A stretch of DNA of 64,000 bases, from NCBI RefSeq assembly GCF_001698225.1, contig NZ_CP016594.1, forward strand, positions 682,001 to 746,000, given 5' to 3'. Numbering within the stretch: the first letter of the stretch is position 1; every line of letters starts with the position of its first letter. The DNA comes from Gordonia terrae (GTDB taxonomy: Bacteria; Actinomycetota; Actinomycetes; Mycobacteriales; Mycobacteriaceae). The translations under genes were made by a program, and so were the position numbers. Positions 22,519 to 46,617 of the stretch are shown in pieces. Below the pieces are notes generated by a model, which was not told the origin of the DNA, made no database searches, and saw nothing but the letters and a program-made list of their open reading frames with translations.

Positions 22519-24177
22519 TCAGTCGGCGAGCAGGGTCTCGCGCAGCACCTTCTTGTCGATCTTGCCGACCGCGGTCACCGGGAGGGTGGTCACGATCCGC
22601 ACCGCGTCGGGCAGTTTGAACGAGGCGAGTCCGCGCTCGGCGAGGAACGTGCGGATGGTCGCGAGCTCCAGCGGCTGGGCCGGGGGGTGCTCATGCGAGA
22701 GCACCACGGCGGCGCAGATCTTCTCCCCGAGTGCGTCGTCGGGTAGGCCGACCACCGCCACCTGTCGGACCGAGTCGTGGGCGAGGAGGTTCTCCTCGAC
22801 GTCGTCGGCAGCGACGTTCTCGCCGGCTCGGACGATGGTGTCCTTGATGCGGCCGGTCACCGCGAGGTGGCCCGACGGCAGCCTCGTCACCTTGTCGCCG
22901 GAGCGATAGAAACCGTCCGGCGTGAAGGACTTCTCGTTGTGGGCTGCGGCCCGGTAGTAACCGCGGATCGTGTACGGCCCACGCACCAGGAGTTCACCTT
23001 CCGTGCCATCGGGGACGTCGTCGCCGTCCTCGTCGACCACGCGCACCTCGTCGAGCTCCGACATCGGCGAACCCTGCACCTGGTGAACAAGCTCGCGCGG
23101 TTCATCGAGACGGGTGTAGCAGATCAGACCCTCGGCCATCCCGAACACCTGCTGCGCGACGGGGCCGAGTGCGGCGTCGAGGGCGACGGCGTCGGGCTGG
23201 GCCAACTTGGCGCCGCCGACCTGCAGCAGGCGCAGCGAGCTGATGTCGGCGGGTTCCCACTCGGTCGCCGCGCACCAGAGTTGCGCGAGGGCGGGGACGA
23301 GCGAGGTCACCGTGATGCGGTGTCGCTCGATCAGGTCGAAGGTGTTGTCCGGGCTGGGGTTGTCGGCGAAGACGATGTGCCCGCCGACGCCGACCACGCC
23401 GAGGATGCCCGGGCAGCTCAACGGGAAGTTGTGTGCTGCGGGCAGCGCGACGAGGTAGGTGTCGTCGGCGGTTAGGCCGGCGATGCCCGCCGACAGTCGC
23501 GCGTTGAGGTCATAGTCGTCGTGGGTGCGGGCGATCAGTTTCGGCAGGCCGGTGGTTCCCCCCGAGACCAGGAACAGCGCAGGCAGGCCGGGGTCGGGGC
23601 CGTCGGGGAGCGCGGTCGCGGCGGGGTCGGCGTCGGGCAGCGCCGCGAACCGGCCGGGATCGCCGGAGATGAAGACCTGCGCGACGTCGGGCACCCGCGA
23701 CTGCAGTTCGGCCGCGAGGTCGCGGAAGTCGAACCCCCGGCGGTCGTCCTCACCGATGTAGGCGACCGCCCCCGAGCCGGTCGCGAGATGGGCGATCTCG
23801 GTGATCCGATGCGCCGGCAGTGTCATCACCGGCACGACACCCGCGCGTAGGAGGCCGAACAGGGTCACGGCGAAGTCGAGGGAGTTGTTGAGCTGCAGGA
23901 CGACCCGTTGGGCGGGCCGCAGACCGGCGTCGACGAAACCGGCGGCCCGGCGCAGGGTGGCGGCGCGGAACTCGGCGTAGGTGAGCGTTCGCGGACCGTC
24001 GGCGGAGGCGTCGGTCACCGCCGGCGCATCGGGGGAGCGCTCGGCCGCGACGTCGAGGGCCGCGAACAGCGGGCGGCCGAGGAACACACCCGCGTCCCGG
24101 TATCGCTGGGCCTGTGCATCGGTGTGGGGGGAGAAACCGTCGAGCAGATCGGTCACGTGGTCGAGGTGCGTCGGCAT
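22519..24177 (-). CDS. mbtA: Salicyl-AMP ligase (MbtA/DhbE family)
   Basis: About 552 residues. It activates an aryl acid with ATP and loads it onto the aryl carrier domain of an NRPS. Motifs: nucleotide loop LFLVSGGTTGLPKLIARTH, aryl-acid site AHNFPLSCPG, QQVFGMAEGLICYTRLDEP, and hinge/C-domain GHLAVTGRIKDTIVRAGEN with catalytic Lys in AVGKIDKK. A Cys where DHB-specific enzymes have Ser in the PLxxPG motif fits salicylate rather than 2,3-dihydroxybenzoate. The ATG at 24177 is chosen; an in-frame TTG at 24189 is possible, and neither has a good ribosome site. Two candidate iron boxes separate it from the divergent salicylate synthase gene. Confidence 0.92.
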   Translation of the reverse strand: MPTHLDHVTDLLDGFSPHTDAQAQRYRDAGVFLGRPLFAALDVAAERSPDAPAVTDASADGPRTLTYAEFRAATLRRAAGFVDAGLRPAQRVVLQLNNSLDFAVTLFGLLRAGVVPVMTLPAHRITEIAHLATGSGAVAYIGEDDRRGFDFRDLAAELQSRVPDVAQVFISGDPGRFAALPDADPAATALPDGPDPGLPALFLVSGGTTGLPKLIARTHDDYDLNARLSAGIAGLTADDTYLVALPAAHNFPLSCPGILGVVGVGGHIVFADNPSPDNTFDLIERHRITVTSLVPALAQLWCAATEWEPADISSLRLLQVGGAKLAQPDAVALDAALGPVAQQVFGMAEGLICYTRLDEPRELVHQVQGSPMSELDEVRVVDEDGDDVPDGTEGELLVRGPYTIRGYYRAAAHNEKSFTPDGFYRSGDKVTRLPSGHLAVTGRIKDTIVRAGENVAADDVEENLLAHDSVRQVAVVGLPDDALGEKICAAVVLSHEHPPAQPLELATIRTFLAERGLASFKLPDAVRIVTTLPVTAVGKIDKKVLRETLLAD

Positions 24178-24200
24178 GAGTTCATTCAAACACAGCCAGG

Positions 24201-24219
24201 ATAGGGTAACCTTACCGGT
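24201..24219. promoter_or_regulatory. Candidate IdeR/DtxR iron box
   Basis: ATAGGGTAACCTTACCGGT matches 13 of 19 positions of TWAGGTWAGSCTWACCTWA by hand alignment. It is 24 bp upstream of the salicyl-AMP ligase ATG and likely represses it in iron-replete cells. Confidence 0.7.
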
Positions 24220-24265
24220 CGATGCGGGACGGTGGGCCCGCTCTCGACCGTGGGGGGTTGTTTGA

Positions 24266-24284
24266 TTAGGCTGCCCTAAGCTTC
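24266..24284. promoter_or_regulatory. Candidate IdeR/DtxR iron box
   Basis: TTAGGCTGCCCTAAGCTTC matches 14 of 19 positions of the IdeR consensus. It lies 50 bp before the salicylate synthase start codon, where it would control the mbtI-led operon. Confidence 0.75.
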
Positions 24285-24333
24285 CCTATGATCATCGGTG
24301 CTTGAGTGCATCACGACCGGAGGAACGAAGGAC

Positions 24334-25674
24334 ATGTCGCTGACAACCGAATCGCACGCCGCGCAGTTCGTCGACCTGCTCGCGCCCGCCTCGCCGCTGG
24401 GTGAGTCCGATGCTGCGCGGATCACGGCCGCCTGGGCGGGTTCCGGCGAGTTCGGCGATCATGTCGTCTACGAGCGCGACCGGCGATGGACCTTCGCGGC
24501 CGGGGTGCGTGCTCGTGTGGTCGTGACGCGGAGCGAGGTCATCGTCGACGATCAGGGTGACCGGACGACGACGCCGTGGCGCGGCGACCCCGCCGACGCG
24601 CTCGCTGCCGCGACCGCTTCGTTGTCGATCCCGGACTGGCGCGTCTACGGCTGGGTCGGCTTCGACTTCTGCGCGCCCTATCACGGCATCCTCGACCGCG
24701 TCCCGGAGGACACCGTCCTGGCGCACCTCATCGTCCCCGAGTTCGAGGTGACCGTCGATGCCGAGGGCGTCGACACCGGCGCCGTCGACGCCGATCGTGC
24801 CCGTCGTCTTCTCGAGATCGCCTCGCAGGCAACTGTTTCGGCAGAGTCGCGACCGGTGGATGTCCAGGCGGACCCCGACGACTACCGGGGGCGGGTGGCG
24901 ACTGCGGTCGCCGAGATCGAAGCCGGCCGGTATCAGAAGGTGATCCTCTCCCGCGCCGTCGACATCCCGTTCGACGTGGACATCCCCGCGACCTACGCGC
25001 GCGGCCGGGCCGACAACAATCCCGCCCGCAGCTATCTGCTCTCGCTCGGCGACCTCCAGGCCGCCGGATTCAGCCCCGAGCTCGTCGTCGCGGTGCATGA
25101 CGACCGGACGGTGGTCACCGAACCGCTCGCCGGGACAAGGGCTTTCGGTATCTCGGCGGATCAGGACGCGGCGGCGCGCGCCGACCTCCTCTCCGATGCG
25201 AAGGAGATCGCCGAGCACGCCATGTCGGTGCGGGCATGCTTCGACGAGATCTCGTCGATCGCAGCGGACGACACCACCGCGGTGAGCGAGTTCATGGAGG
25301 TCCGCGAACGAGGCAGCGTCCAGCACCTGGCCTCGACCGTCCGCGGCACCCTCGCTGCTCACGAATCACCCTGGCGTGCACTCGAAGTCGTCTTCCCGTC
25401 GATCACCGCGTCGGGGATCCCCAAGACCCCGGCGGTGGAGGCGATCGACCGCCTCGAGCCGCGGCGTCGTGGCCTGTACTCCGGCGCCATCCTCACCGCG
25501 GCATCGACGGGCGAACTCGAGGCCACCCTTGCGCTGCGCACCATCTTCTCCTCCGGAGACGGCGCGTGGCTGCGTGCCGGCGCCGGGATCGTCGCGCAGT
25601 CCACGCCGGAGCGCGAGTTCACCGAGACCTGCGAAAAACTCGGCAGCGTCGCCCCGTACGTGGTCCCGCGCTGA
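24334..25674 (+). CDS. mbtI: Salicylate synthase (MbtI family)
   Basis: A 446-residue chorismate-utilising enzyme that turns chorismate into salicylate via isochorismate. Key segments: AGRYQKVILSRAVDIPF, whose Lys matches the general base Lys205 of MbtI, VTEPLAGTRAFG, MEVRERGSVQHLASTVRG, FPSITASGIPKTPAVEAI and the metal-site end REFTETCEKLGSVAPY. It aligns over its whole length with MbtI/YbtS salicylate synthases rather than EntC-type isochorismate synthases, and no EntA or EntB homologue is nearby. The ATG at 24334 follows GGAGG at 24319-24323. First gene of an operon with the ACP, acyl-ACP dehydrogenase and WS/DGAT genes. Confidence 0.93.
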   Translation: MSLTTESHAAQFVDLLAPASPLGESDAARITAAWAGSGEFGDHVVYERDRRWTFAAGVRARVVVTRSEVIVDDQGDRTTTPWRGDPADALAAATASLSIPDWRVYGWVGFDFCAPYHGILDRVPEDTVLAHLIVPEFEVTVDAEGVDTGAVDADRARRLLEIASQATVSAESRPVDVQADPDDYRGRVATAVAEIEAGRYQKVILSRAVDIPFDVDIPATYARGRADNNPARSYLLSLGDLQAAGFSPELVVAVHDDRTVVTEPLAGTRAFGISADQDAAARADLLSDAKEIAEHAMSVRACFDEISSIAADDTTAVSEFMEVRERGSVQHLASTVRGTLAAHESPWRALEVVFPSITASGIPKTPAVEAIDRLEPRRRGLYSGAILTAASTGELEATLALRTIFSSGDGAWLRAGAGIVAQSTPEREFTETCEKLGSVAPYVVPR

Positions 25675-25719
25675 TCACCCGATACTTTCGACCGAACACC
25701 CCATCTCAGGAGTCACCAC

Positions 25720-25968
25720 ATGTCCGACCACATCACCGAAGCCCTGCGCGGCATCCTCGAAGAAGACCTCGACCTCTCGCTGGGAGACGTCAGCCGCGAC
25801 GCGAAGCTGATCGACGACCTGGGACTGGATTCGGTGGCGTTCGCCATCGGTGTGGTGGCGATCGAGGAGCGGCTCGGCGTGAAGCTGTCCGAGCGGGAGC
25901 TCTTCGAGTCCAAGACCGTCGGTGACCTCGAAGACCTCATCCGGTCGAAGGCCGGCACCCCGGCCTGA
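25720..25968 (+). CDS. mbtL: Acyl carrier protein (MbtL-like)
   Basis: An 82-residue carrier protein with the phosphopantetheine site LGLDSVAFA (Ser about residue 37) and acidic helices. By position between salicylate synthase and an acyl-ACP dehydrogenase it corresponds to MbtL, which carries the fatty acyl chain of mycobactin. The acyl chain would be loaded by the FAAL at 44117 and desaturated by the next gene. A poor ribosome site (CAGGAG) lies 9 nt before the ATG. Confidence 0.88.
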
Positions 25969-25982
25969 GACGGAGAGTCGAC

Positions 25983-28619: not shown

Positions 28620-29468
28620 ATGAGCAACGACGTCAACTACCAGGACCCGTCGGCGGTCGACTACCAATCCGGGGTCGATTACCGCGAACCGGATGCGGGT
28701 TCGTCGCGTCGGTCGGGCGGGGTCAGCATCCCGACCGTGCTGGCGTCGGCAGGCGTCGCCGCCATCATCTCCGCGATCGTCGTGACGATCGGCGTGGTGG
28801 GCATCGTGGTGAGCGAGCGTAACGATTCCGCCACCGCCGCCCAGCCGACCGTCGTCAACCTCGGTGCCGCGCAGACGGCGCTGCCCCAGCAGGGCATCGC
28901 GGGCCAGCAGCCGGGCGCGGTCCCGGGCCAGCCCGCACCCGCCGGGGCGCCGGCCGCCGGAGCGCCCGCAGCGGCCCCGACGGAGAACGTGCCCGAAGGC
29001 GGCGGCGCGATCGGCGGACCGGTCGGCCCTCCCGGTGAGGGAGCTGGTCAGGCCCCGGCACCGGCGCCGGCACCGGGCACCACGGCCGCGCCGCAGCAGA
29101 CCGTGGCCGCCGGGCCCACTGCGCTGACCCCGGGACAGCTCAACACCAAGGTCCGGATCGTCATGAACTCCAACGGCAGCCGCGCCGCCCGGGCCGCCGA
29201 ACTCGAAGGCGGTGAGCGTGCGCTCCGCCAGATCGACCTCGTCGCCCGTGCGATCACGACCTACGGCAACGTCGGGCTGAGTTACCAGATGGTCGGGCCG
29301 GTCCAGGTCAGTGGCAACACGCTGACCGCGCCGCTGCAGATCAGCGTGGTCGGCCGCGGAAGCCAGAACCGGTCGATGACGTTCGTGTGGAGCGGCAACA
29401 AGTGGAAGCTGTCCAACCGAAGCGTCTGCACCATAGCGGGATTCGTCCTGCTGCCCTGCTCGCTCTGA
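28620..29468 (+). CDS. Membrane-anchored protein with MTB12-like C-terminal domain
   Basis: A 282-residue protein: acidic cytoplasmic N-terminus (about 1-35), one membrane helix (TVLASAGVAAIISAIVVTIG), a long Ala/Pro/Gly-rich linker (about 85-165), and a C-terminal domain (LTPGQLNTKVRIVMNSNG to the end) resembling the low-molecular-weight antigen MTB12/CFP-2 family. The domain ends in two Cys (SVCTIAGFVLLPC). Function is unknown. An iron box upstream and a siderophore-binding lipoprotein downstream suggest a cell-surface role in iron uptake or siderophore export. Confidence 0.7.
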   Translation: MSNDVNYQDPSAVDYQSGVDYREPDAGSSRRSGGVSIPTVLASAGVAAIISAIVVTIGVVGIVVSERNDSATAAQPTVVNLGAAQTALPQQGIAGQQPGAVPGQPAPAGAPAAGAPAAAPTENVPEGGGAIGGPVGPPGEGAGQAPAPAPAPGTTAAPQQTVAAGPTALTPGQLNTKVRIVMNSNGSRAARAAELEGGERALRQIDLVARAITTYGNVGLSYQMVGPVQVSGNTLTAPLQISVVGRGSQNRSMTFVWSGNKWKLSNRSVCTIAGFVLLPCSL

Positions 29469-29532
29469 CGGCCGGGCACACACTCTGTCCGGTCCGCCGG
29501 ACGACATCGACACTCCATTGGGGGATCTTCAC

Positions 29533-30507
29533 GTGACTTCACGACATCGCCTGGGCGCTCTCGTCGCGAGCGCACTCCTGTTCGCGGGCCTGCTGGCCGG
29601 TTGCTCGAGCTCGGATGACGAATCCGCGGGCGGCTCCGTCCAACTCAATCTCCCGGACGGCAGGCAGGTCACCATCCCGGACACCCCGGAGCGGATCGTC
29701 ACACTGGGTGACCAGTGGACCGACGTCGTGTTGTCGTTCGGTGAGACGCCGGTCGGTTACTACGACTACTCGAAGTCGGCGACCGGCGAGATGCAGCCCT
29801 GGTACGGCCAGAAGCTGGCCGATGCCACGTTCGTCGACCCCACCAAGGGTGACGACGCGACGACCATCGCCACACTGAACCCCGATCTGATCTTCGCACC
29901 GGGTTTCGCGTCGGACAGCCCGGAGTTCGAACAGATCTCGAAGCTGGCGCCGACGGTGAACGCCATCAGCGACCAGGAAATCGACCCCTGGCAGGACATG
30001 GTCACCGTGATGGGCACGGTGCTGCACGATCCGGAGAAGGCGAAGTCGATCATCGACGACACCAACGGCAAGATCGCGGCGGTGTCCGAGGAGTACCCGG
30101 GTCTGAAGGGCAAGACCTACGCGTTCGCCTTCATGTACGGCCCCGATCAGCTGTCGGTTCTCGGTGACGAGAACGACGGTGCCGGAAAGCTGTTCACCCA
30201 GCTCGGCATGAAGATGGCCCCCAAGCTGGTCGCCGAGTACCAGCGGACCGGGCAGCCGCGGTTCGGTCTGAGCACCGAGAACATCCCGATGCTCGACGCC
30301 GACGTGCTCGTCGTGGCCACCGCCACCCCCGAGCAGGCGGAGACCCTGCGGTCGCTTCCCGGATACAAGAACCTGAAGGCGGTCAAGGACAACGCCGTCA
30401 CGTTCATGACCCAGTCGCAGATCACCGGCCTCAACGCGCCGACGCCGAACTCGATCCCCTACGTCCTCGATCTGCTCAAGCCGTCCTTCGCCGCGGCGTC
30501 CAACTGA
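29533..30507 (+). CDS. Siderophore ABC transporter substrate-binding lipoprotein (FepB/FecB type)
   Basis: A 324-residue lipoprotein with lipobox LLAGC (Cys about residue 23) after a standard signal peptide. The helical-backbone binding fold is shown by TIPDTPERIVTLGDQWTDVVLSFG and TIATLNPDLIFAPGF. Such proteins deliver ferric siderophores to FecCD-type permeases; no permease or ATPase gene is in the window. GTG start with GGGGGA about 8 nt upstream. Followed by a strong terminator at 30518-30556. Confidence 0.9.
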   Translation: MTSRHRLGALVASALLFAGLLAGCSSSDDESAGGSVQLNLPDGRQVTIPDTPERIVTLGDQWTDVVLSFGETPVGYYDYSKSATGEMQPWYGQKLADATFVDPTKGDDATTIATLNPDLIFAPGFASDSPEFEQISKLAPTVNAISDQEIDPWQDMVTVMGTVLHDPEKAKSIIDDTNGKIAAVSEEYPGLKGKTYAFAFMYGPDQLSVLGDENDGAGKLFTQLGMKMAPKLVAEYQRTGQPRFGLSTENIPMLDADVLVVATATPEQAETLRSLPGYKNLKAVKDNAVTFMTQSQITGLNAPTPNSIPYVLDLLKPSFAAASN

Positions 30508-30821: not shown

Positions 30822-32141
30822 CTAGGGAGCGACGATGTCGTCGTCGTCCGCGGCGCCGAAGCTGGTGAACGCGGTGTGCTTGGGCAACCGGTAGGCCTCT
30901 CGGCCCAGAACCGTGTTGAGGATGCGCGCGTTGCGGACGGCGCCGATGTCGAGGTTCGGGGCCGAGACGCCGTGCGCGTGCTCCTCGGCGTTGGCGACGA
31001 AGATCCGGTTGGTCAGGGCGTCGTCGGTCTCGATCTCGTGGTTGGCGCCGATGACGAGCCGTCCACGGGAATCGCGATGCAGCGCAGACTCGATCGGAGC
31101 GAGGAAGTCCGCCTTGCGCGCCTGGTATCCGGTGCTGGCGATGACCATGTCGGTGGTGTGGGCCAGTTCGGAACCGGTGTCGAGGTGGCGGCCGCGCACC
31201 CGGAGCTTGCCGTCGGCGAGGGTGTCGACGCCGTCGACCTCGACCGAGATCCGCAGCTGCACCGGGTTGAGCTTGTCCTGCAACTGACGCCGGTACAGCA
31301 GGTCGTGGAGCCGCTCGAGCGAGTCGGTGGAGATTCCCTTGTGGAACTGCCAGTGCTGCGGGCGGACCCGGTCACGTGCGGCCTCGGGAAGACTGTGGAA
31401 GTAGTCCATGTAGGCCGGCGTGGTCATCTCCAGCGACAGCTTCGTGAAGTCCAGGGGTGCGAACCATGGTGTGCGCGTCCACCATCGCACGGCGGGGCCG
31501 CCGCGCAGGTTGGCCTCGAGCAGATCGATGACGATCTCGGCACCCGACTGGCCGGATCCGACGACCGTGACGGTGTCGGCGGCCAGCGCCTTCTCCTGGT
31601 TGAACAGGTAGTCGGAACTGTGGACCACGGCCGGCGACTCCGACGAGAGTGCTTGCGGGATGAAGGGTTCGGTGCCGATCCCGACCACCACGTGACGCGC
31701 GATCACCGTCGAGGAGCTCGTCGGTGTGTGCATGGTCACCCGGAAGGCATCGGCCTCGGCGTCCCATGTCACCTCGTCGACGGTGGTGCTCCACCGGAGT
31801 GAGTCGAGCCGGGACACGCACCAGAGGAGGTAGGCCTCGTACTCGATGCGCGTCGGAAAGAAGTCCTCGCGCACCAGGAATCGGTACATGCGATCGACGT
31901 CGGCCATGTAGTTCAGGAACGACAGCGGGTGGGTCGGATCGACGAGCGTCACCAGATCGGACAGGAAGCTCACCTGCAGGGTGGCATCGTCGAACATCAG
32001 GCCCGGGTGCCACCGGAACTCGTCGCGTGAGTCGACGACGAGGAGGTTCACGTCGTCGAGCGTCGAGGCGAGCGCGGCGAGGCCCAGATTGAACGGGCCG
32101 CAACCGATCGCCAATACGTCTACGTTCTCAACAGAGTTCAT
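30822..32141 (-). CDS. Amine/lysine N-monooxygenase (IucD/MbtG/DesB family)
   Basis: A 439-residue class B flavin monooxygenase that N-hydroxylates a primary amine to build hydroxamate groups. Motifs: FAD site AIGCGPFNLGLAAL at the N-terminus, WHPGLMFDDATLQVSFLSDLV, NADPH site VVGSGQSGAEI (about residue 195), and ASTGYQ near residue 335. It could act on lysine (MbtG, IucD) or on a diamine (DesB). Because its start overlaps the stop of a PLP decarboxylase gene (ATGA), a decarboxylated substrate such as cadaverine is favoured. Last gene of the minus-strand operon. Confidence 0.93.
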   Translation of the reverse strand: MNSVENVDVLAIGCGPFNLGLAALASTLDDVNLLVVDSRDEFRWHPGLMFDDATLQVSFLSDLVTLVDPTHPLSFLNYMADVDRMYRFLVREDFFPTRIEYEAYLLWCVSRLDSLRWSTTVDEVTWDAEADAFRVTMHTPTSSSTVIARHVVVGIGTEPFIPQALSSESPAVVHSSDYLFNQEKALAADTVTVVGSGQSGAEIVIDLLEANLRGGPAVRWWTRTPWFAPLDFTKLSLEMTTPAYMDYFHSLPEAARDRVRPQHWQFHKGISTDSLERLHDLLYRRQLQDKLNPVQLRISVEVDGVDTLADGKLRVRGRHLDTGSELAHTTDMVIASTGYQARKADFLAPIESALHRDSRGRLVIGANHEIETDDALTNRIFVANAEEHAHGVSAPNLDIGAVRNARILNTVLGREAYRLPKHTAFTSFGAADDDDIVAP

Positions 32142-33682: not shown

Positions 33683-33732
33683 TGAGTTCCCCCTTGTTGA
33701 CTCTGGCGCGCGATGGCGCGGCGGCAGGCCGG

Positions 33733-35235
33733 TCATCCGGCGGTGCCCTTCTGCGGAACGCGCTCGGCGAGGATTTCGAGGAGCGCGGAGACGGAGTGGT
33801 GCAACGACGTCGGGATCAGGTCGACGAGCGTGGTGAGCACGGCGGTGGCTCGGTCGGCCATCTCGTCGGGGACGATTCCCGGCTGGTGATCGACCTCGAC
33901 GTGGGTGCTGTCGTCGTCGGCCTCGAAGGCGATCGAGAGCGGATAGTTCGCGATCCCGTTGAAGACCGACCGGCAGGTGACCGGCGCGTCGGCGGGTTGC
34001 GGGATACCGCGCAGCGGCGCGGGTCGGACCGACGCCATGATCTCGATGACGGGGAACCGTCCACCCTGCTGTCGCAACGCGGTGAGAACCGGCCCGAAGT
34101 CGGTGCCGGAGTGTTCCATCGACCGGTAGATGACCGAACCCGCTTCGCGGAGGGCCTGTTCGACGGTGGCGTCGGGGTCGACGCGGAACCGCATCGGGAT
34201 GATGTTGCCGCAGTAGCCGACGTCCTGCGGTGCCTGCTCGCGCCGACGATTGTCCGCCGGCACCACCAGGACGTGGTCCGCGGCGCCGGTCAGTGCGTAC
34301 GACGCCAGCGAGCAGACCCCGATCAGAAGTGCGTTGGGCGTTGCCCCGACGGTCTGGGCCACCCGCCCGAAGGCGGACAGCGAGTCGGCCGCCACCGGGG
34401 CGGCGGCCTTGATCCCGTCGCGGTCGTCCATCGGTGACAGCCAGCTGTCGGCGGCGCTCTCCGTGGGCAGCTCGCCGGTGAGCGGGTAGCGGACATCGTC
34501 GGCAGCCCAGGTCGCGATCGCATGCCGCACCGCGCTGTTCGCTGCTTCCGCGGCCGCCGCGGGGTCGGGCGTCTCCGGTCGGGCGTCCGCGGTGACGTCT
34601 CCCGGCCACGAACCCGACACCAGGGTGCCCAGGAGCAGGGGCCATGACGTGTCGTCGACCGCGAGGTGGTGGACCACCAGGATCATCGTGACGTTCCCGT
34701 CCGACCCCGAGACACGCATGCGCAGTGGGACTTCCGAGTGGAGATCGAACGGTGTCCGGGTGAGCGCGGTGGCTGTGGCGTCGACATCGTCACCGGCGTC
34801 GCTCACAGCCGAGTCCGTCGGTCCCCAGGTCCACACCGATCGCGAGGCGTCCCACGAGCCCGCGCGCGGCACCTCGCGGCGGCTCGGCGTGCCCGCATCG
34901 TCGACCTCGACCACCGAGCGCACCACCCGGAACCGGTCGACGAGCAGCTCGGCGGCGGCGACGACCGAACCGAGCGTCCGGCGTCCGCCGAACTCCAGCA
35001 CGAGTCCGATGTTGTGCGACAACGATTCCGGGTCCAGTTCATAGATCCGCCACATCCGGCGTTCGGCGATGCCGAACTCGCCGAACGGCACAGTCGCCTC
35101 GGGTCGAGTGTCACCGGCGCCGGGAGCGGAGCGAGCGGGCCGAAGGTCACCGGCGCCGGGAGCGGGCCGAATGTCACCGGCCTGCGCGAGCCGACGACGC
35201 AGGAGCGTGAGGCGCGCTTCGGTCAACGCGGGCAT
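33733..35235 (-). CDS. Stand-alone NRPS condensation-domain protein
   Basis: A 500-residue free-standing condensation domain with no adenylation or carrier domain. The active-site motif reads [12 protein letters not shown], so HHxxxDG has Asp for the final Gly. Other C-domain landmarks are [19 protein letters not shown] near residue 50 and [10 protein letters not shown] in the C-terminal half. The N-terminal 45 residues include a Gly/Pro/Ala tandem repeat (APGAGDxRPA). Like VibH in vibriobactin assembly it may join a carrier-bound acyl chain to a soluble amine. Its start overlaps the acylase stop by 13 bp. Confidence 0.85.
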
Positions 35236-37571: not shown

Positions 37572-39382
37572 CGGCCCCTCTGCGACGCAATCGGATTGGC
37601 GAGCCGGTGACCGGCATCGATCAGTGATGCGTAGGAGTCCTCGATGTCGACCATGCGTTTGTTGTTGCGCAGCTGCAGGCCGTTCATGTGCACCGCGCCG
37701 AACTCCGGCGCGAACAGATCCCAGCGGGTGAACCGGTCCTCGAGTTCGGGATGGGCGGCCACGAACTCGTGCAGGCTCTCACCGACCAGCGACCAGAACT
37801 CGCCGTCGTCGACGATGCCGTGTGTGTGCAGGACCGCGGCGAGGGGGCGCAGGAAGTCGTCGAAGACATCCGACAGCACGCCCAGGTTGCGGATCTCGTC
37901 CGGCTCGGTCGTCCGGACCCGTGCGCAGCTCTCGGGGAGGCCCTGGGCCTCCCCGAACACCGACACCTCCTCGCCGATGTCCTTGAGGATGGCGCGCACC
38001 GGGATGCCGTCGGCGAGTACCAGGATGAGGTTCTCGCCGTGCGGGGAGAACTTCAGCTCATATCGGTAGAGCAGATAGGCGATGGGATGGAGATAGGTCC
38101 GCAGGTAGCGGCGGATCCACTCCGTCGCCGGGACACCCGATCGCTCGATGAACGCGCCGACGAGTGGTTCACCCAGGTGATCGACGTGGAGCAGCGCGGC
38201 CATGGTCGACAACTGCTCATCGGCGGCCGTCAGCGGCACCGGGCTCTGTCGCCACAGCGCCGACAGGATCTTGCGGTACTCCGATCCCGGCTGGGTGATC
38301 GGCGTGAAAGTCGGGCTGCGGTAACCGATCGCCGCGACCTCGAAGATCATCTCGAACCCGATCGCCGCGAGGTACTGGTCGTCGGCCACGAGTCCGCGGA
38401 CCCAGTTGTTGATCAGCGGTGTCGTACGCATGTAGTCGGCGGACATCCCGCGCGTGAAGCCCATGTTCACGATCGACAGCGCGACCTTCACGTAATTGCG
38501 GGTCGGCGTGGTCGAGTTGAACACCGTGCGGATCGACTGCTGGGCCTGGTAGAGGTCGGGACTCGTGCCGACCTCGACGATGCGACGGCCCGCGATGTCG
38601 GCGGAGTACAGCTTCCGTACCTTCTCGACCCACTGCCAGGGGTGTACCGGCAGATAGCGGTAATCAGCGGGGTCACAACCGGCTTCGCGCAGCGCCGAGT
38701 CGAACCCCGCCACCGTCTCGGCACCGAGCTCGTCGACGAGCAGTGTGTCGTAGTCGATGTCGCTCACGGTGGCGACATCGCAATCCTCGCGACGAGCAGC
38801 CAGCCAGACGAGCCGGAAATGGTTGCCGACCTCGGGAGCGTAACGCTCGATGTCCTCGGAACTGAAGCCCAGTCGGCCCGCGTTGGCCACGATGCACGGA
38901 TGGCCCTCGGTCATCGTCGCCTCGATGGTCTGGAAGTCGGCGTGCGCGAGATCGGTTGCCGGAATGCGGCGTTCGTCCGGACGGTCGGCGCTGATCGCCA
39001 GGGTGTTGATGAACTCCTCGAGGTATTCCGGCAGGGCCTGGGGCCCGATCCCCAGGAACGGGGCGAGGTCGACGATCATCGCGACCGCGTCGATCGGGAG
39101 TTCGTCGCCACCCCGCACACGACGCAACGACGACTCGTCGATCGCCCAGCTGTCCAGGGCGAGCCGGTCGGCGCGGAAGTGGTAGTCGGTGAGACCGTCG
39201 GCGGAGGAGACGACGTAACCGTCGCCGCTCGCGACCGGGTGGAGGGCCCGCTCGTGCGAGAACTCGGCGAGGATCTTCGTCGCGATCCTGGTGTGATACG
39301 TCTGGCGATGGCTTCGCGCACCCGACCCCCCGGCCGTGCGCGTCGCGAATTCCTGAATGGTCCCGATGTCCTGGAGAGTCAA
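37568..39382 (-). CDS. NIS siderophore synthetase (IucA/IucC family, DesD-like)
   Basis: A 604-residue ATP-dependent amide-forming synthetase. N-terminal IucA/IucC landmarks include [28 protein letters not shown] and [13 protein letters not shown]; the centre has [20 protein letters not shown] and NNWVRGL, closely reminiscent of DesD; the C-terminal FhuF-like part includes [15 protein letters not shown]. DesD condenses N-hydroxy-N-succinyl-cadaverine units. The start is TTG at 39382, 4 bp after the acyltransferase stop, suggesting translational coupling. A single NIS enzyme is present. Confidence 0.93.
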
Positions 39383-40053: not shown

Positions 40054-43000
40054 TCAGCTGCGCGCGATCTCGGCCTCCACCTGTTCGTCGGTGAGGTGTA
40101 TGACGTCGAGGAAGGTCTGCGCCACGAAGGATGCGCGTTCCCCGCCGAGCTCGGTGAGCCGTCCGGCGAGACCCGCGATGGTCCGCTGGGTGAAGATGTC
40201 CGCGACCGAGAGGCCGGGTGCGTCGAGCCACTGGCGCACCAGCGCGACCACCCGGGTGGCCTGGACGGAATCCCCGCCGAGAGAGATGAAGTCCTCGGTG
40301 ACGCTCGCCGGCGGGGCGGGCAGGACCTCGCCGAAGATCACCGCGAGGGCTTCTTCCACCGGGCCGCGAGGTGTGACGGCCTCGAGCGGGTCGTCGTCGG
40401 TGTCGGTGCCGGCGGCGATGGCCTTGCGGTCGTGTTTGCCGTTCGGCGTCAGCGGGAACCGGTCCAGGACCGCGACGGAACGCGGGACCATGTGTGGCGG
40501 CAGGGTTTCGGTCAACCGGGCGCGCAGGCCGGCGTCGTCGTCGGTCGCCCCGGCAGTGAGCACGACCGCCGCGCGTAGGTCCCGGCCGTCGGACCACGCG
40601 ACCGCCGAGCCCACCCCGTTCAGGCCCAGGAGGCCGGCCTCGACCTCACCGAGTTCGACGCGATATCCACGGATTTTGACCATGTGGTCGGCGCGACCGA
40701 GGAAGTCCAGGAAGCCGCCGGGTAGGTAGCGCGCGAGATCACCGGTGCGGTACCAGCGTTGACCCTCGTGCTCGACGAAGCGGTCGGCGGTGCGTTCCGG
40801 ATCGCCCCGGTACCCGTCGGCCACCCCGGCCCCGCCGATCCACAGTTCGCCCGGTACGAGGTCGGGCCGGTCGCGACCGGCGTCGTCGACGATTCGGCAG
40901 CGGACGCCGCGCAACGGTATTCCGTACGGTACGAACGCCATTCCGGCCGGGACGGCATCGGCTTCGCAGATGGTGGAGTGGATGGCCGTCTCGGTGGTCC
41001 CGCCGAGACCGGCGACGCGACAATCCGGCAGTTGCGCCGCGACACGGTCGAGCAGTGACACATCGACCTTGTCGCCGCCCATGATGATCATCCGCAGCGA
41101 CGAGGGCAGGGGCGCGAGGTCGAGGAGCATGCCGAGGATCGACGGCACGCAGTTGAGCACACTGACCGACTGTTCGCCGAGCAGTCGCACCCAGTCGTCG
41201 ACCTTGGTCTGCTCGTCGTCGCCCGGCACGACGACGGCGCCGCCCACGGTCAGCAATCCGAAGATGTCGAAGACGGAGAGATCGAATTCCAGCGACGACA
41301 CCTGCAGGCTGCGGTCGCCTGCCCCGATCGCGTACCGGTCGACGAGGTCGGTGATGGTCGCCACCGCGGCGCGATGCGGAACCTGCACGCCCTTGGGCAG
41401 GCCGGTCGAGCCGGAGGTGAACAGTACGTAGGCGAGGTCGTCGGTGGCCACCGCGATCGGCTCGGTCGGCTCGGCGAGCCGGGCGTCGTCGAGCGTGAGC
41501 ACGGTGCCGGCGGTGGGTTCCCAGGCCGCGGGATCGGTGGTGAGAACAGCGGCGGGAGTGGCGACGTCGAGGATGCGCTCGCGGCGTGCCCGGGGCTGTG
41601 TGGGGGCGATCGGGACGTAGGCGGCGCCGGCGGCGAGGACTCCCAGCGCCGCGACGACCTGGTCGCCGCCCTTGGGTAGATGGACGATCACCGTGTCGCC
41701 GGACGCGACACCAGCCGCGACAAGTGCGCCGGCGACGCGCCGGGCTTCCTCGGCCAACTCGGCGTGGGTCCAGGTACGTGCATCGGACACGACGGCCGGC
41801 GCGTCGTCGTGCTCGGCGGCCCGGGCGAAGAAGGTTCCGTGCAGGGTCCCGTCGAAGGTGTCGGTGACCGGCAGTGGGCCTTCCACCGAGAGTCGCTGTG
41901 CGCGAACCTCCGCGCTGATCGGCGACGGTGCGGGCGCATCCCATTCGCCGTCGACGAGGAGTCCGAGAAGCCGGACGTAGTGGTCGAACATCGAACGCGC
42001 AGTGGAGAGTCGGAGATCAGAGGCGCGGACGTCCCAGTTGAGGAGGAGGCCACCGGCCACCTCGGTCACCTGGGCGTCGAGAAGGACCTGCGGGCCCTGC
42101 GACACGATCCAGGACGGATCTCCCAGCACGTCGGTCGCCTGCTGGGAGAAGAGGTCTCCCAGTCCCAGTGCGCTGGTGAACACGATCGGCGAGACAACGG
42201 GCTCGCCACGGTGGCGGCTCAGTTCGCGCAGCACGTCCAGGCCGCTCATCGAACCGTGCGCGGCGGCCTCGTGCATCGACGACCGCATCGACCGTGCTCG
42301 CTCGGCGAGTGTGGCCGGCGCGCTCAGGTCGACACCCACGAGGATCGACGAGGTGAAGTCGCCGACCACGCGCTCGACGTCCGGGTGCACCTGGGGTCGG
42401 TCGAACAGCGGCACGGTGATCAGGAAACACGGTGTGGCCGAATGTGTTCCGACTGCCTCGGCGAACACCGCGGCGACCGCCGCCGCCGGGGTGACCCCGC
42501 GTCGGTGTGCGTGCTCCTCGAGCCGTTTCCAGTCCGAGGCGGACACCGAATGGTGCAGGCGGACACTGTGCGGCTCGACCTCACCGCGCGCCGCGCGCTC
42601 GTCGAGCGGGAGCTCGGGCGGTCCGGGGAGCGTGGGAATGCGTTCGCGCCACCAGGTCACGTCGTCGTCGAGGATCTCGCGGGACGTGCGATCCGCGGTG
42701 ATCGTCGCGAAGGTCACGCCGAGCTCGGGCAGGGTCTCACCGCGGTATAGGCGAGCGAAGTCGTCGACGAGTACCCGGTAGCTCATCGCGTCCGCGGCGA
42801 TCATGTCGACGTCGAGGTGGACACGGGCCGAGTTCGCCGGCAGCAGACTCAGTTCGGCGCGGATGACCGCTCCTTCGTCGACCGGCAGCGTGCGGTGTGT
42901 GCCGTCGGCGCGCTTCGCGGCCAGGATCTGCTCGACCATCTCTGCCGAATGGGACCGGAGATCATGCACGGCAATGGCTTCCGGGTGCGCCGGGCCGATC

Positions 43001-43740
43001 TCCTGGGTGCCGTCGGGGAGCACGCGGACGCGCAGCATCGGGTGGCGCTCCATCAGCGCGGACATGGCCGCGGCGAAGCGTTCGGGATCGACGTCGGAAC
43101 CGTCGAACTCGATGTAGAGGTGTGCCGCGACGTTGCCGAAGGCGTGACTGTCCGATCGCCCGATCCAGTAGGCGTGCTGCATCGGGGCGAGGGGGAACGG
43201 TCCGGTGGTCGCTTCGGACACCGGTGACGAGGAGTCGTCGTCGGCGATCGGTGCCGATGCGCCGCCCAGCAGTGCTGCCCAGGCGGTGATGGTCGGTTGT
43301 GCGGCGAGGCGGGCGAAGTCGATGTCGATGCCGCGTTTGCGCCAGGTGCCGGCGAGTCGCATCATCCGCAGGGAATCGAGTCCCTGGGCGATGAGGTCCT
43401 GGTCTGGGTCGAGCGACTCGGGAGAGACGCCCAGCGCGGTGCCCACCTCGGCGCGGATGTCCGGTGTGGTCGTGTCCACCTCGGCGTCACCGGTGGCAGC
43501 GAGAAGGAGTGGTGCCCAGGCGGTGATGGTCGGTTGTGCGGCGAGGCGGGCGAAGTCGATGTCGATGCCGCGTTTGCGCCAGGTGCCGGCGAGTCGCATC
43601 ATCCGCAGGGAATCGAGTCCCTGGGCGATGAGATCCTGCTCCGGGTCGATCGACTCGGGCGTCAGGCCGAGGGCCCCGGCCACCTCGGCGACGATGTCGG
43701 CCATGGTGGCAAGGTCCGTGGTCTGGGAATTCGTGGCCAT
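40054..43740 (-). CDS. NRPS, ArCP-ArCP-Cy-A-PCP (MbtB-like with doubled aryl carrier)
   Basis: A 1228-residue synthetase. Two aryl carrier domains come first (attachment Ser44 and Ser123, both in [11 protein letters not shown]), then a heterocyclisation domain (about 180-620, with DMIAADAMS fitting DxxxxDxxS at D312/D317/S320), an adenylation domain (about 640-1125, [24 protein letters not shown]) and a PCP (ISLGGDSVQ, about 1170). This is the phenyloxazoline/thiazoline synthase plan of MbtB: salicylate on ArCP is joined to Ser, Thr or Cys and cyclised. No thioesterase, so release needs another enzyme. ATG at 43740 is chosen (AGAGG upstream). First gene of a roughly 13-kb operon to 30822. Confidence 0.93.
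43276..43395 (-). repeat. 120-bp direct repeat, second aryl carrier domain copy
   Basis: These 120 bases are identical to 43513-43632. The offset is 237 bp, exactly 79 codons. The repeat encodes most of the second ArCP, including attachment Ser123. Confidence 0.97.
43513..43632 (-). repeat. 120-bp direct repeat, first aryl carrier domain copy
   Basis: Identical to 43276-43395 and in frame. It encodes most of the first ArCP including Ser44. Sequence outside the repeat (linkers and N-terminal helices) has diverged, which suggests local gene conversion rather than one very recent duplication. Confidence 0.97.
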
Positions 43741-43798
43741 CAGCCGGCGTGCCTCTCGCAGTTCGGTGACATGGTTACTCAGGCTGGGGAACCCGCAT

Positions 43799-43817
43799 TT
43801 AGGGTAGGTTATACTAA
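43799..43817. promoter_or_regulatory. Candidate IdeR/DtxR iron box
   Basis: TTAGGGTAGGTTATACTAA matches 15 of 19 consensus positions. A second, weaker register overlaps it (TAGGTTATACTAACTAA), so two dimers may bind. It lies about 60 bp before the NRPS start. Confidence 0.78.
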
Positions 43818-43877
43818 CTAACCGCTCTGCCCAATCCCTGGGCATGCCGGCGAGAGAGCCCCACGAGCCGACGCGAA

Positions 43878-43896
43878 TTAGGTTAGCCTAAGTTGG
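43878..43896. promoter_or_regulatory. Candidate IdeR/DtxR iron box
   Basis: TTAGGTTAGCCTAAGTTGG matches 15 of 19 consensus positions, with the first 14 bases perfect. It lies midway between the divergent genes. Confidence 0.82.
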
Positions 43897-43970
43897 CTCC
43901 GAACGTCCCATCGGATGATGTGAATCACGCTGCGCCACCGACAGGATCTGGGTCTTGTGTCCTAGAAAGA

Positions 43971-43989
43971 TTAGGCTACCCTACCCAAA
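43971..43989. promoter_or_regulatory. Candidate IdeR/DtxR iron box
   Basis: TTAGGCTACCCTACCCAAA matches 15 of 19 consensus positions. It lies about 130 bp before the FAAL start codon. Confidence 0.75.
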
Positions 43990-44116: not shown

Positions 44117-45766
44117 ATGTCGCAGAACAGCGTGATCCTGGAGGAATCGGGCTCGACCAATGCGTTGGCGGCCACCGTTCGTGAGGCGATGCTGGCGGGA
44201 GACACGAGCCTCTCCGTCCTGGACTCCGATACCGGCGAGTGGGTGACGGCACCATGGCGCGAGGTCCACGCCCGCGCCGAGCAGATCGCCGTCCAACTGC
44301 TCGCCGACAGCGAACTGCACGAGCCGCAGGCCCTCGGCCTGATCGGGGACCCCACGGTGGATCTGATCGCCGCCATCCAGGGCGCGTGGCTCGCCGGCGT
44401 TCCGGTCACCATCCTGCCGGGTCCGATCCGAGGGGCGGACGAGGAGCGGTGGGCGCAGAACACCTACCAGCGGTACGTCTCGATCGGCGTCGGCACCGTC
44501 CTCGGCAGCGGCACCCAGCTCGACCTGCTGACCAAGGTCGAGGGACGGCTGCACATCGCCCGCGTGGCCGAATACGGCCTGGGCGCAGACACCACCGACT
44601 TCGTCGCGCGCAATGTCAACGGCAACACCATCGCCGTCCTCCAGGGAACCGCCGGTTCGACCGGCGACCCGAAGACCGTCGCCCTCACGGCGTCGGCCGT
44701 CTACTCGAACGCCATCGAACTGGTCAGCCGGCTCGGCCTCCACCGCACCCGCGACACCGGATTCAGTTGGTTGCCGCTCTATCACGACATGGGTCTGATG
44801 TTCCTGCTCGCCGGAATGACCACCGGCATCCCGGCCTACATCGTGCCCAACACCGCCTTCGCCGCGGCGCCCTTCAAGTGGATGCAGTGGCTCACCGAGA
44901 CCAAGACGACCGTCACTGCTGCGCCGAACTTCGCCTACGACATCCTCGGGCGCTACGGCAAGCTGCTGCGCGACATCGACCTGTCGAATCTGCGCGTCGC
45001 GATCAGTGGCGGAGAGCCGATCGACGCCGACGCGTTCGACAAGTTCCTCGAGGCGACCGCGCCGTTCGGCTTCGATCGGTCCGCCGCCGCACCCGCCTAC
45101 GGAATGGCTGAATCCGCGTGCGCGGTGACGATGCCCGCGGTCGGCGAGGGCGTGCACTACGACGAGGTCACCGTGACCCCGCCCGGCGGTGGCGAGCCCA
45201 TTCGCCGCCGGTACGCGATCCTCGGTAAACCGCTGGGCGGCATGCAGGTTCGCATCGTCGAGCCGAATGTCGACGTCCCGGTGATCGACGGGCGCAACGT
45301 CGGGCACGTGGAGATCCGCGGTGCGTCGATGATGCGCGGCTACCTCGGCGACGCGGATCTCGGTGCGGGTGAATGGTTCTCGACCGGCGACCTCGGTTAC
45401 CTGGTCGACGACCGGCTGGTGATCTGTGGACGGGCCAAGGAGGTCATCATCGTCGCCGGCCGCAACCTGTTCCCGATCGAGATCGAACGTGCAGCCGCCG
45501 AGGTGGCCGGGGTGCGTCGTGGTGGCGTCGTGGCGATGGCCCGAGGTGAGGGATCGTCCCGTCCGGGCCTCGTGATCCTCGCCGAGTACAAGGGTTCCGA
45601 TCCGGACACCGCGCGCGCCGAGGTCAACTCCGAAGTCGCATCGGCGTGCGGGATCATGCCCGCCGAGGTGATCTTCGTCGCGCCGGATTCGGTGCCCCGC
45701 ACCACATCCGGAAAGATCCGCCGGCTCGAGACCCGTCAGATGGTCGAGAACGGCACCTTCGAGTAG
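44117..45766 (+). CDS. mbtM: Fatty-acyl-AMP ligase (MbtM/FadD33-like FAAL)
   Basis: A 549-residue adenylating enzyme that activates a fatty acid and passes it to an ACP. Motifs: VLQGTAGSTGDPKTVALT (nucleotide loop), FSWLPLYHDMGLMF, AAPAYGMAESACAVTMP followed by extra sequence before RYAILGKPLGG, ending WFSTGDLGYLVDDRLVICGR and RTTSGKIRR. The LPLYHDMGL motif and the extra segment after the A5 motif mark it as FAAL rather than FACL. With the ACP and dehydrogenase at 25.7-27.2 kb it forms the lipid-tail set of a mycobactin-like pathway. The ATG at 44117 is downstream of an iron box. Confidence 0.9.
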   Translation: MSQNSVILEESGSTNALAATVREAMLAGDTSLSVLDSDTGEWVTAPWREVHARAEQIAVQLLADSELHEPQALGLIGDPTVDLIAAIQGAWLAGVPVTILPGPIRGADEERWAQNTYQRYVSIGVGTVLGSGTQLDLLTKVEGRLHIARVAEYGLGADTTDFVARNVNGNTIAVLQGTAGSTGDPKTVALTASAVYSNAIELVSRLGLHRTRDTGFSWLPLYHDMGLMFLLAGMTTGIPAYIVPNTAFAAAPFKWMQWLTETKTTVTAAPNFAYDILGRYGKLLRDIDLSNLRVAISGGEPIDADAFDKFLEATAPFGFDRSAAAPAYGMAESACAVTMPAVGEGVHYDEVTVTPPGGGEPIRRRYAILGKPLGGMQVRIVEPNVDVPVIDGRNVGHVEIRGASMMRGYLGDADLGAGEWFSTGDLGYLVDDRLVICGRAKEVIIVAGRNLFPIEIERAAAEVAGVRRGGVVAMARGEGSSRPGLVILAEYKGSDPDTARAEVNSEVASACGIMPAEVIFVAPDSVPRTTSGKIRRLETRQMVENGTFE

Positions 45767-45821
45767 ATCCGATTTTCCGTGGGGCGTCGTGTCATCCCGG
45801 CGGCCACGAGAATGACAGTGT

Positions 45822-45849
45822 CTCTCCGGCCCGTCACCGGGCCGGGGAG
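45822..45849 (+). other. Hairpin between FAAL and siderophore-interacting protein genes
   Basis: CTCTCCGGCCCG and CGGGCCGGGGAG form a 12-bp stem (one G-U pair) around TCAC, 22 bp before the next ATG. There is no T tract. It could slow transcription or stabilise the mRNA; a simple leader structure is equally possible. Confidence 0.5.
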
Positions 45850-45870
45850 GCGCTGTAGAGAGGTTCAGGT

Positions 45871-46617
45871 ATGAGCGAGGTATCGACCAAGGGTCGTGGC
45901 TGGCAGGGCGCGGTCATGAAGATCCTGGGTGGCGATGACTTCACCTTCACCGTCACCGCGAAGGAGTCGGTGACCGACCACTATCTGCGACTTCATTTCG
46001 ATGGTGGCGGGCTCCTCGCCGACTCCACGGTCCACCCCACCATGTGGGTTCGACTGTGGTTCGCCGACGGCGGCAAGATGCATCAGCGCGGATACACGCT
46101 GGTCGATCCCGACCCGTCGACGGACACCTTCGACATCGAGTTCGCCATCCACGACGGCACCGCGGCGCGGTGGGCCCGGGACGCGCAGGCGGGGGACACC
46201 ATCGGTGCCACCCTGATGGGCTCGAAGTTCGCGATCCCCGAGCCCGCCCCGGTGGGCTGGCTCATCGCCGGCGACACCGCTTCGCTTCCCGCGATCAACT
46301 CCTTGCTGGACACGCTCGGGAACTCCGGTGCTGGAGCGACCATCTGGTTCGAGTACCAGCACGAGAGCGACAAGTCATTGCCGCTGCGACTCCGCGATCA
46401 CGACACGGTCCACTGGATCGCGCGCGGGGCGGACGGTGGCGCTCTCGTCGACGCGGTTCGGTCCGCCGCCTTCGATGCCACGGACCATTTCGGTTGGGTG
46501 GCCCTCGATTCGGTGAGCACGCGCGCAGTCGCTGGATCGTTCAAGGCCGACTTCGGGCTTCCCAAGAAGTCGGTGAAGTCCCAGGCGTATTGGATCGTCG
46601 GGAAGTCGTTCGCCTGA
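45871..46617 (+). CDS. Siderophore-interacting FAD-binding protein (ViuB/SIP family)
   Basis: A 248-residue flavoprotein that reduces imported ferric siderophores to release iron. The FAD-binding RxYT-type motif is HQRGYTLVDPD (about residue 70), followed by WLIAGDTASLPAINSLLDTL for the nicotinamide/SIP domain and the C-terminal KSQAYWIVGKSF. It lies 104 bp after the FAAL gene on the same strand, making it the catabolic partner of the biosynthetic locus. No iron box is visible directly in front of it, so it may depend on readthrough from the FAAL promoter. Confidence 0.9.
   Translation: MSEVSTKGRGWQGAVMKILGGDDFTFTVTAKESVTDHYLRLHFDGGGLLADSTVHPTMWVRLWFADGGKMHQRGYTLVDPDPSTDTFDIEFAIHDGTAARWARDAQAGDTIGATLMGSKFAIPEPAPVGWLIAGDTASLPAINSLLDTLGNSGAGATIWFEYQHESDKSLPLRLRDHDTVHWIARGADGGALVDAVRSAAFDATDHFGWVALDSVSTRAVAGSFKADFGLPKKSVKSQAYWIVGKSFA

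What the first reader, a model, noticed from the sequence alone, without database searches (positions are those of the whole stretch)
22519..46617. Hybrid mycobactin/desferrioxamine-type siderophore gene cluster
Seen: salicylate synthase, salicyl-AMP ligase, ArCP-ArCP-Cy-A-PCP NRPS, FAAL, ACP and acyl-ACP dehydrogenase (mycobactin logic) share one iron-boxed locus with a PLP decarboxylase, amine N-hydroxylase, IucB/MbtK acyltransferase and DesD-like NIS synthetase (desferrioxamine logic), plus a stand-alone C domain. Known: nocardichelins, as I recall, combine a salicyl-oxazoline with N-hydroxycadaverine/succinate units and a fatty acyl tail. Inference: the product is a nocardichelin-like lipidated mixed-ligand siderophore made by joining an NRPS half and an NIS half. 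I know of no firmly described gene set with exactly this layout.
Basis: partly seen in the sequence, partly recalled or inferred. Interest (0 to 1): 0.88.

Follow-up and report, generated by a model that had tools for sequence, protein, structure and literature searches.

The report
Gordonia nocardichelin-type siderophore gene cluster
This stretch of a Gordonia-like chromosome holds the genes for an iron-scavenging molecule that joins a salicylate cap, two desferrioxamine-type units and a fatty tail; it is a close relative of the nocardichelin gene cluster reported in 2025, so it is real but not new in kind.

Summary
In detail: window 22519-46617 is one iron-boxed locus combining a salicyl-oxazoline NRPS half, a desferrioxamine-type (NIS) half and mycobactin-type lipid genes. 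The nocardichelin-like product reading is well supported. The NIS and GNAT proteins are closest in the PDB to NcdF and NcdE. Printed stretches of both are identical to proteins of a Nocardia-like genome (G021) whose locus has counterparts of twelve genes here. The claim that no such gene set is described does not hold: a 2025 ACS Chem Biol paper on nocardichelin biosynthesis (seen only as a reference) and a 2025 PLoS Biol proposal for Gordonia rubripertincta CWB2 (passages) exist. The inferred building blocks reproduce published nocardichelin formulas. Seven core genes occur in 28 of 28 related loci chosen by NIS similarity; the C-domain, ACP, WS/DGAT, FAAL and salicylate genes occur in 0 of 74 desferrioxamine-type loci. 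Which enzyme attaches the fatty tail is open; the WS/DGAT protein is my candidate.

The parts
22519..24189 (-). salicyl-AMP ligase (MbtA/EntE type)
   Evidence: PF00501, TIGR02275 565 bits below its cut-off of 724
24196..24279 (.). two iron-box-like sites between the divergent salicyl-AMP ligase and salicylate synthase genes
   Evidence: 14 of 19 at 24196 and 15 of 19 at 24261
24334..25674 (+). salicylate synthase (MbtI type)
   Evidence: TIGR03494 486 bits, cut-off 325; the only one of 5 matches in the genome that is over the cut-off
25720..25968 (+). acyl carrier protein (MbtL-like role inferred)
   Evidence: NF004533 97 bits, cut-off 72; PF00550
25983..27164 (+). acyl-ACP dehydrogenase (MbtN type)
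   Evidence: NF037942 604 bits, cut-off 700; PF00441
27205..28512 (+). WS/DGAT-family acyltransferase with HHSVSDG; candidate fatty-acyl N-transferase
   Evidence: PF03007, TIGR02946 99 bits, below its cut-off of 310, motif
28620..29468 (+). secreted or membrane-anchored protein, WKL-lipoprotein-like
   Evidence: NF053527 55 bits, cut-off 105; no Pfam match
29533..30507 (+). FecB-type siderophore-binding lipoprotein
   Evidence: PF01497, scanned as 29518-30507
30822..32141 (-). diamine N-hydroxylase (DesB-like)
   Evidence: PF13434 344 bits; nearest PDB chains 6xbb (a monooxygenase), 5o8p (desferrioxamine pathway) and 7us3 (putrescine N-hydroxylase)
32138..33733 (-). PLP decarboxylase (DesA-like; lysine to cadaverine inferred); start approximate
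   Evidence: PF00282; best PDB chain 5o5c, desferrioxamine decarboxylase
33733..35220 (-). stand-alone condensation domain, HHLAVDD active-site motif; start approximate
   Evidence: PF00668 65 bits; motif read in the alignment
35223..37571 (-). DesG-like penicillin amidase family protein
   Evidence: PF01804 485 bits; PDB 35sz alpha and beta chains matched, beta start aligned to residue 222, sequence ..SGSN..
37568..39382 (-). NIS synthetase (DesD/NcdF type)
   Evidence: PF04183 and PF06276; best PDB chain 9nom NcdF 868 bits, then DesD 569 bits
39387..39995 (-). GNAT acyltransferase (DesC/NcdE type)
   Evidence: PF13523; best PDB chain 9nij NcdE
40054..43845 (-). NRPS ArCP-ArCP-Cy-A-PCP, no thioesterase domain found; the true start is probably inside this ORF
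   Evidence: GLDSL twice, DMIAADAMS (Cy motif), GGDSV; ArCP repeats 79 aa apart, 61 of 85 residues identical
43799..43989 (.). three iron-box-like sites around the divergent NRPS and FAAL starts (the first lies inside the longest NRPS ORF)
   Evidence: 15 of 19 at 43799, 43878 and 43971
44150..45766 (+). fatty acyl-AMP ligase (MbtM type); the ORF opens at 43955, start approximate
   Evidence: NF004510 712 bits, cut-off 621
45871..46617 (+). siderophore-interacting protein (ferric-siderophore reductase)
   Evidence: PF04954 and PF08021

Best explanation
This is a Gordonia ortholog of the nocardichelin (ncd) gene cluster; it builds one lipidated hexadentate siderophore from an NRPS half and an NIS half. 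Inferred route: salicylate synthase makes salicylate; the ligase loads it on the ArCPs; Cy-A-PCP adds serine (or threonine) and closes an oxazoline. The decarboxylase and N-hydroxylase make N-hydroxycadaverine. The GNAT succinylates one copy. The FAAL, ACP and MbtN-like dehydrogenase prepare an unsaturated fatty acyl-ACP, and an acyltransferase (my candidate is the WS/DGAT protein) puts the fatty acyl on a second copy. The NIS synthetase joins the succinyl unit to the amine of the lipidated unit, and the stand-alone C domain transfers the salicyl-oxazoline from the PCP to the remaining amine, which also releases the product. The DesG-like amidase probably recycles succinylated monomer so that enough is lipidated. 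Shown here: gene identities, orthology, co-conservation, iron boxes, formula balance. Inferred: each step, the order and the product.
For: All domains were found. NIS and GNAT are nearest to the PDB chains NcdF and NcdE. Printed NcdF (306 aa) and NcdE (188 aa) stretches are 100% identical to genome G021, whose locus holds counterparts of the window's SalAMP, SalSyn, NRPS, GNAT, NIS, amidase, C, PLP decarboxylase, N-hydroxylase, ACP, acyl-ACP dehydrogenase and WS/DGAT genes at 52-76% identity, with NRPS-GNAT-NIS-amidase-C-PLPdc-NOH in the same order. Salicylate + Ser + 2 N-hydroxycadaverine + succinate + C16:1, C14:1 or C18:1 acid gives exactly the nocardichelin A, B and C42 formulas (formulas from passages of PMC6467163; arithmetic). 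Core genes NIS, GNAT, PLPdc, NOH, C, amidase and NRPS occur in 28 of 28 related loci chosen by NIS similarity (57% or more); ACP and WS/DGAT in 24 of 28, the other four being stretches that reach a contig end. Among 74 loci with NIS at 51% identity or less (flanks of at most 10 kb, full in 54), 0 have C, ACP, WS/DGAT, SalAMP, SalSyn or FAAL hits and 1 has an NRPS hit. The hybrid NIS proteins form one side of a branch (100/100; 31 against 25 rows). The genome has one NIS, one PF13523 GNAT over the cut-off, one salicylate synthase over the cut-off and one strong Lys/Orn-type hydroxylase (344 bits, next 53).
Against: No metabolite data for this strain. The A-domain pocket, read by hand against recalled codes, is DLFNIGLIH(K): by my count 7 of 10 like the recalled Cys code, 6 of 10 like Thr, 4 of 10 like Ser, so serine rests on the formula balance, not the code. 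The FAAL is only 33% identical to the G021 FAAL and the SIP 36%, so these two may not be orthologs. In 8 of the 28 relatives the NRPS is only 45-46% identical and salicylate synthase was not found, so not all relatives make the same compound. Acyl-CoA dehydrogenase hits also occur in 29 of the 74 desferrioxamine-type loci (their identities were not examined), so that gene is not a clean marker. Fisk et al. 2025 could not be read. Decarboxylation of lysine rather than ornithine is inferred.
Confidence: 0.9

Rival explanations
1. The locus makes nocardichelins and also desferrioxamines (DFO B or E) from the shared NIS half, as proposed in print for Gordonia rubripertincta CWB2.
For: [quoted passage not shown] The NIS is DesD-related.
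Against: This genome has only one PF13523 GNAT over the cut-off, while the paper points to a distinct GCN5-related acetyltransferase in CWB2. The hybrid NIS proteins lie apart from the DFO-type loci sampled.
Confidence: 0.4
2. Two independent pathways happen to be neighbours: a DFO-type NIS pathway and a separate salicyl-oxazoline (mycobactin-like) pathway.
For: Each half has homologs that work alone elsewhere (recalled); 73 of 74 DFO-type loci show no hit to the NRPS.
Against: NIS-half and NRPS-half core genes co-occur in 28 of 28 relatives, in one gene run. The genome has no second strong Lys/Orn-type hydroxylase, which a mycobactin would need. The C domain is interleaved with NIS-half genes and would otherwise lack an obvious substrate.
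Confidence: 0.05
3. The single GNAT does both acylations (succinyl and fatty acyl, as MbtK does for the fatty acyl in mycobactin), and the WS/DGAT protein has another role.
For: MbtK chains are distant PDB relatives of the GNAT (E 1e-6). MbtK transfers acyl chains in the mycobactin pathway (recalled).
Against: WS/DGAT is kept with an intact HHxxxDG in 24 of 24 hybrid loci that do not reach a contig end and gave no hit in 74 DFO-type loci. It lies next to the MbtN-like gene in 13 and next to the ACP gene in 11 loci. It is the lowest-scoring but one of the genome's seven WS/DGAT matches, as if specialised.
Confidence: 0.35

Closest known systems
Nocardichelin (ncd) gene cluster of Nocardia; PDB chains NcdE and NcdF; Fisk et al. 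2025, ACS Chem Biol 20:1435 (title seen only in a reference list)
   Same: Counterparts of the salicylate, NRPS, GNAT, NIS, amidase, C, decarboxylase, hydroxylase, ACP, acyl-ACP dehydrogenase and WS/DGAT genes, with the same order for seven of them
   Different: 52-76% protein identity; duplicated ArCP (one GLDSL in G021, two here); FAAL and SIP that are not clear orthologs of the G021 ones; added FecB-like and lipoprotein-like genes
Gordonia rubripertincta CWB2 DFO/nocardichelin locus (PLoS Biol 2025, PMC12161575)
   Same: Same genus by inference; DFO genes, a DesG homolog, salicylate synthase and NRPS in one locus; proposed to make nocardichelins
   Different: The paper mentions a further distinct acetyltransferase; its gene table and figure were not available to me
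Desferrioxamine pathway (DesABCD, with DesG)
   Same: Decarboxylase, N-hydroxylase, GNAT and NIS logic
   Different: No C, ACP, FAAL or WS/DGAT hits within at most 10 kb of the NIS in 74 DFO-type loci, and 1 NRPS hit
Mycobactin pathway (MbtA, I, L, M, N, B)
   Same: Salicylate loading, Cy-A-PCP and the fatty-acyl genes
   Different: No PKS or MbtE/F-like NRPS among the locus ORFs scanned; the hydroxylase is of the diamine type rather than MbtG-like

Membership tests
Nocardichelin (ncd)-type NRPS-NIS cluster | NIS and GNAT of the NcdF/NcdE type | tested here: met
   best PDB matches; same side of a 100/100 branch as G021
Nocardichelin (ncd)-type NRPS-NIS cluster | salicylate synthase, aryl ligase and ArCP-Cy-A-PCP in the same locus | tested here: met
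Nocardichelin (ncd)-type NRPS-NIS cluster | stand-alone C domain to join the halves | tested here: met
   HHLAVDD in place of HHxxxDG
Nocardichelin (ncd)-type NRPS-NIS cluster | product is salicyl-oxazoline, two N-hydroxycadaverine, succinate and unsaturated fatty acyl | not testable with these tools
   only the formula balance of published compounds
Nocardichelin (ncd)-type NRPS-NIS cluster | orthologous FAAL | tested here: inconclusive
   33% to the G021 FAAL but 712 bits to the MbtM model
Desferrioxamine (DesABCD) cluster | NIS within the DFO-type DesD group | tested here: not met
   the 25 DFO-type rows (24 of the 74 loci plus G368) and the hybrid rows are separated by one branch, 100/100
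Mycobactin cluster | MbtG-type amino acid N-hydroxylase | tested here: not met
   169 bits to MbtG against 306-319 bits to chains named monooxygenase, desferrioxamine-pathway monooxygenase and putrescine N-hydroxylase
Mycobactin cluster | MbtE/F lysine NRPS modules and MbtC/D PKS | tested here: inconclusive
   none among the locus ORFs scanned; the rest of the genome was not searched for PKS, and its other NRPS genes were not typed

The most novel reading that the evidence does not exclude
A WS/DGAT-family enzyme, a family known for making wax esters and triacylglycerol, has been recruited as an ACP-dependent N-acyltransferase that lipidates N-hydroxycadaverine. The neighbouring DesG-like amidase frees succinylated monomer for it, so the pair replaces the DesG-DesH acetyl-capping pair of desferrioxamine B. 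Relatives swap the aryl cap while this core stays fixed.
Probability: 0.45. Interest if true: 0.45.

Novelty: new member of a known kind. Interest (0 to 1): 0.27.

Why it matters
It places the hybrid NRPS-NIS siderophore pathway firmly in Gordonia: 22 of 59 genomes of the genus, this one included, carry the NIS, and the other 21 all carry the seven core genes. That gives ready strains for testing how an NRPS thioester and an NIS product are joined by a stand-alone C domain, and which enzyme adds the lipid. The kind of system itself is already in print.

Tried and rejected
A strict 19-mer iron-box search and a form with free positions found nothing; a looser 14-mer shaped after looking at the sequence found 8 matches (5 places, both strands) against 0.15 expected, so I repeated the test with the recalled 19-mer consensus and a Markov null. 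An AlphaFold model of the NIS from nine sequences was poor (mean pLDDT 50.7), so no fold search was made. The A-domain code script read the last position (K517) one residue too early and printed G; the sequence there reads TPNGK. Paper searches for WS DGAT with siderophore, hydroxamate and acyltransferase, for NIS synthetase hybrids in Nocardia and for N-hydroxycadaverine with oxazoline found none. Separate-pathway and plain mycobactin or plain desferrioxamine readings were considered and rated low.
Full report
What is there. The window is G000:C1:682001-746000 of a 5.70-Mb single-contig genome. The nearest named NIS relative is G. amicalis at 81% (which may leave out records near the window's genome). 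The listed genes were found by Pfam and NCBIfam scans of chosen ORFs and all lie within the stated coordinates. Iron-box-like sites sit upstream of the two divergent gene pairs; one of them (43799) falls in the first codons of the longest NRPS ORF, whose true start is probably further in.

The gene between the C domain and the NIS synthetase is a penicillin amidase family protein (PF01804, 485 bits), the family of DesG. PLoS Biol 2025 (passages read) reports that desG inactivation cuts DFO B about 1000-fold in Streptomyces coelicolor and proposes that DesG removes succinate from N-hydroxy-N-succinylcadaverine. Next to the MbtN-like gene lies a WS/DGAT-family protein with an intact HHSVSDG. A FecB-type binding protein and a lipoprotein-like protein complete the set.

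Identity with a known system. The best PDB match of the NIS is 'NcdF, a non-ribosomal independent siderophore synthetase' (868 bits; DesD 569 bits) and of the GNAT is NcdE. The printed NcdF stretch (306 residues) and NcdE stretch (188 residues) are 100% identical to genome G021. G021's locus contains SalAMP, SalSyn, SIP, NRPS, GNAT, NIS, amidase, C, PLP decarboxylase, hydroxylase, ACP, acyl-ACP dehydrogenase, WS/DGAT and a FAAL, in that order; FecB-like and lipoprotein-like genes were not found there, and its FAAL and SIP are only 33% and 36% identical to those here. [quoted passage not shown] 2025), which I saw only as a reference in PMC13036778. PMC12161575 independently proposes nocardichelin synthesis for the G. 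rubripertincta CWB2 locus (its S7 table and S8 figure were not seen).

Formula check. PMC6467163 (passages) gives nocardichelin A C40H65N5O8, B C38H61N5O8 and a further C42H69N5O8, detected in a Gordonia strain. Salicylate, serine, two N-hydroxycadaverines and succinate, less six waters, leave C16H30O2, C14H26O2 and C18H34O2: even monounsaturated fatty acids, as an MbtN-like dehydrogenase would make. With threonine the remainders are odd-numbered. This fits the gene set but does not prove the product in this strain.

Comparative evidence. The NIS is in 22 of 59 genomes of the genus. I compared 28 loci chosen because their NIS is 57% or more identical: 21 genus relatives, six Nocardia-like genomes and Williamsia herbipolensis (L061). 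A ninth genome in the first batch, G368 (NIS 47%), has a plain DFO-type locus and serves as contrast. NIS, GNAT, PLP decarboxylase, hydroxylase, C, amidase and NRPS are in 28 of 28, though in 8 of them the NRPS is only 45-46% identical; ACP and WS/DGAT are in 24 of 28, the four misses (G399, G421, G401, G424) being stretches that reach a contig end. Salicylate synthase is found in 14 of 28, the same four being unknown and 10 showing none in the stretch fetched, so the aryl part varies. Two further named loci, Nocardia puris (L058) and N. harenae (L059), also show the seven core genes within 10-kb flanks; L058 shows no WS/DGAT hit in that stretch. In these, within flanks of at most 10 kb (full in 54), C, ACP, WS/DGAT, SalAMP, SalSyn, FAAL and the lipoprotein-like gene gave 0 hits, NRPS 1, FecB 1, amidase 7, SIP 29 and the acyl-CoA dehydrogenase 29 (identities not examined). 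In a tree of 56 NIS proteins the 31 hybrid rows are one side of a branch with 100/100 support; the other side is 24 of the 74 loci plus G368.

Mechanism. Shown: the parts, their orthology, their co-conservation and the single copies in this genome of NIS, PF13523 GNAT over the cut-off (a second match of 24.5 bits is under it) and salicylate synthase over the cut-off. The hydroxylase is the only strong PF13434 match (344 bits; the other 18 are 20 to 53 bits). Inferred: the route given under best explanation. Two hydroxamate acylations are needed but only one such GNAT is present. The WS/DGAT protein, present in 24 of 24 loci that do not reach a contig end, with no hit in the 74 DFO-type loci, and much weaker as a WS/DGAT match (50 bits) than five of the genome's other six (164-260 bits), is the likeliest second acyltransferase. 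The stand-alone C domain keeps the catalytic His as HHLAVDD; with no thioesterase found on the NRPS, transfer to the amine of the NIS product would also release the chain.

Novelty. The kind of system is published; this is a further member in Gordonia. I found no account of a WS/DGAT protein in siderophore lipidation in one search aimed at it; no search was aimed at variation of the aryl cap. The key paper could not be read, so no claim of first description is made.

Noticed in passing
L183:6116-11950 (genome G418) and the loci of G433, G411, G449, G285, G081: Six Gordonia relatives keep the hybrid core but show no salicylate synthase in the stretch fetched. G418 has instead an aryl-AMP ligase (42%), a stand-alone adenylation domain, a PigA/RedW-like dehydrogenase (177 bits, cut-off 500) and a second acyl-CoA dehydrogenase-like protein, which suggests a pyrrole-2-carboxyl cap.
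   Followed up: partly
window 28620-29468: A proline/alanine-rich secreted or anchored protein with a WKL-lipoprotein-like C-terminus lies beside the FecB gene here and in 13 of the compared loci; its siderophore role is unknown.
   Followed up: partly
window 43260-43755 (NRPS N-terminus): Tandem ArCPs 79 aa apart, 61 of 85 residues identical; 10 of the 12 closest Gordonia loci (window included) have two GLDSL carriers, G399 and G401 have one.
   Followed up: partly
L044:7595-13159 (genome G060; likewise G345): Two Nocardia-like relatives carry an extra large NRPS (1854 aa in G060) and a separate 59-60% Cy-containing NRPS fragment besides a 46% NRPS, so their cap probably differs again.
   Followed up: no
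G000:C1:4322545-4382237 and 3214801-3248030: Very large NRPS open frames (up to 13451 aa) elsewhere in the same genome.
   Followed up: no
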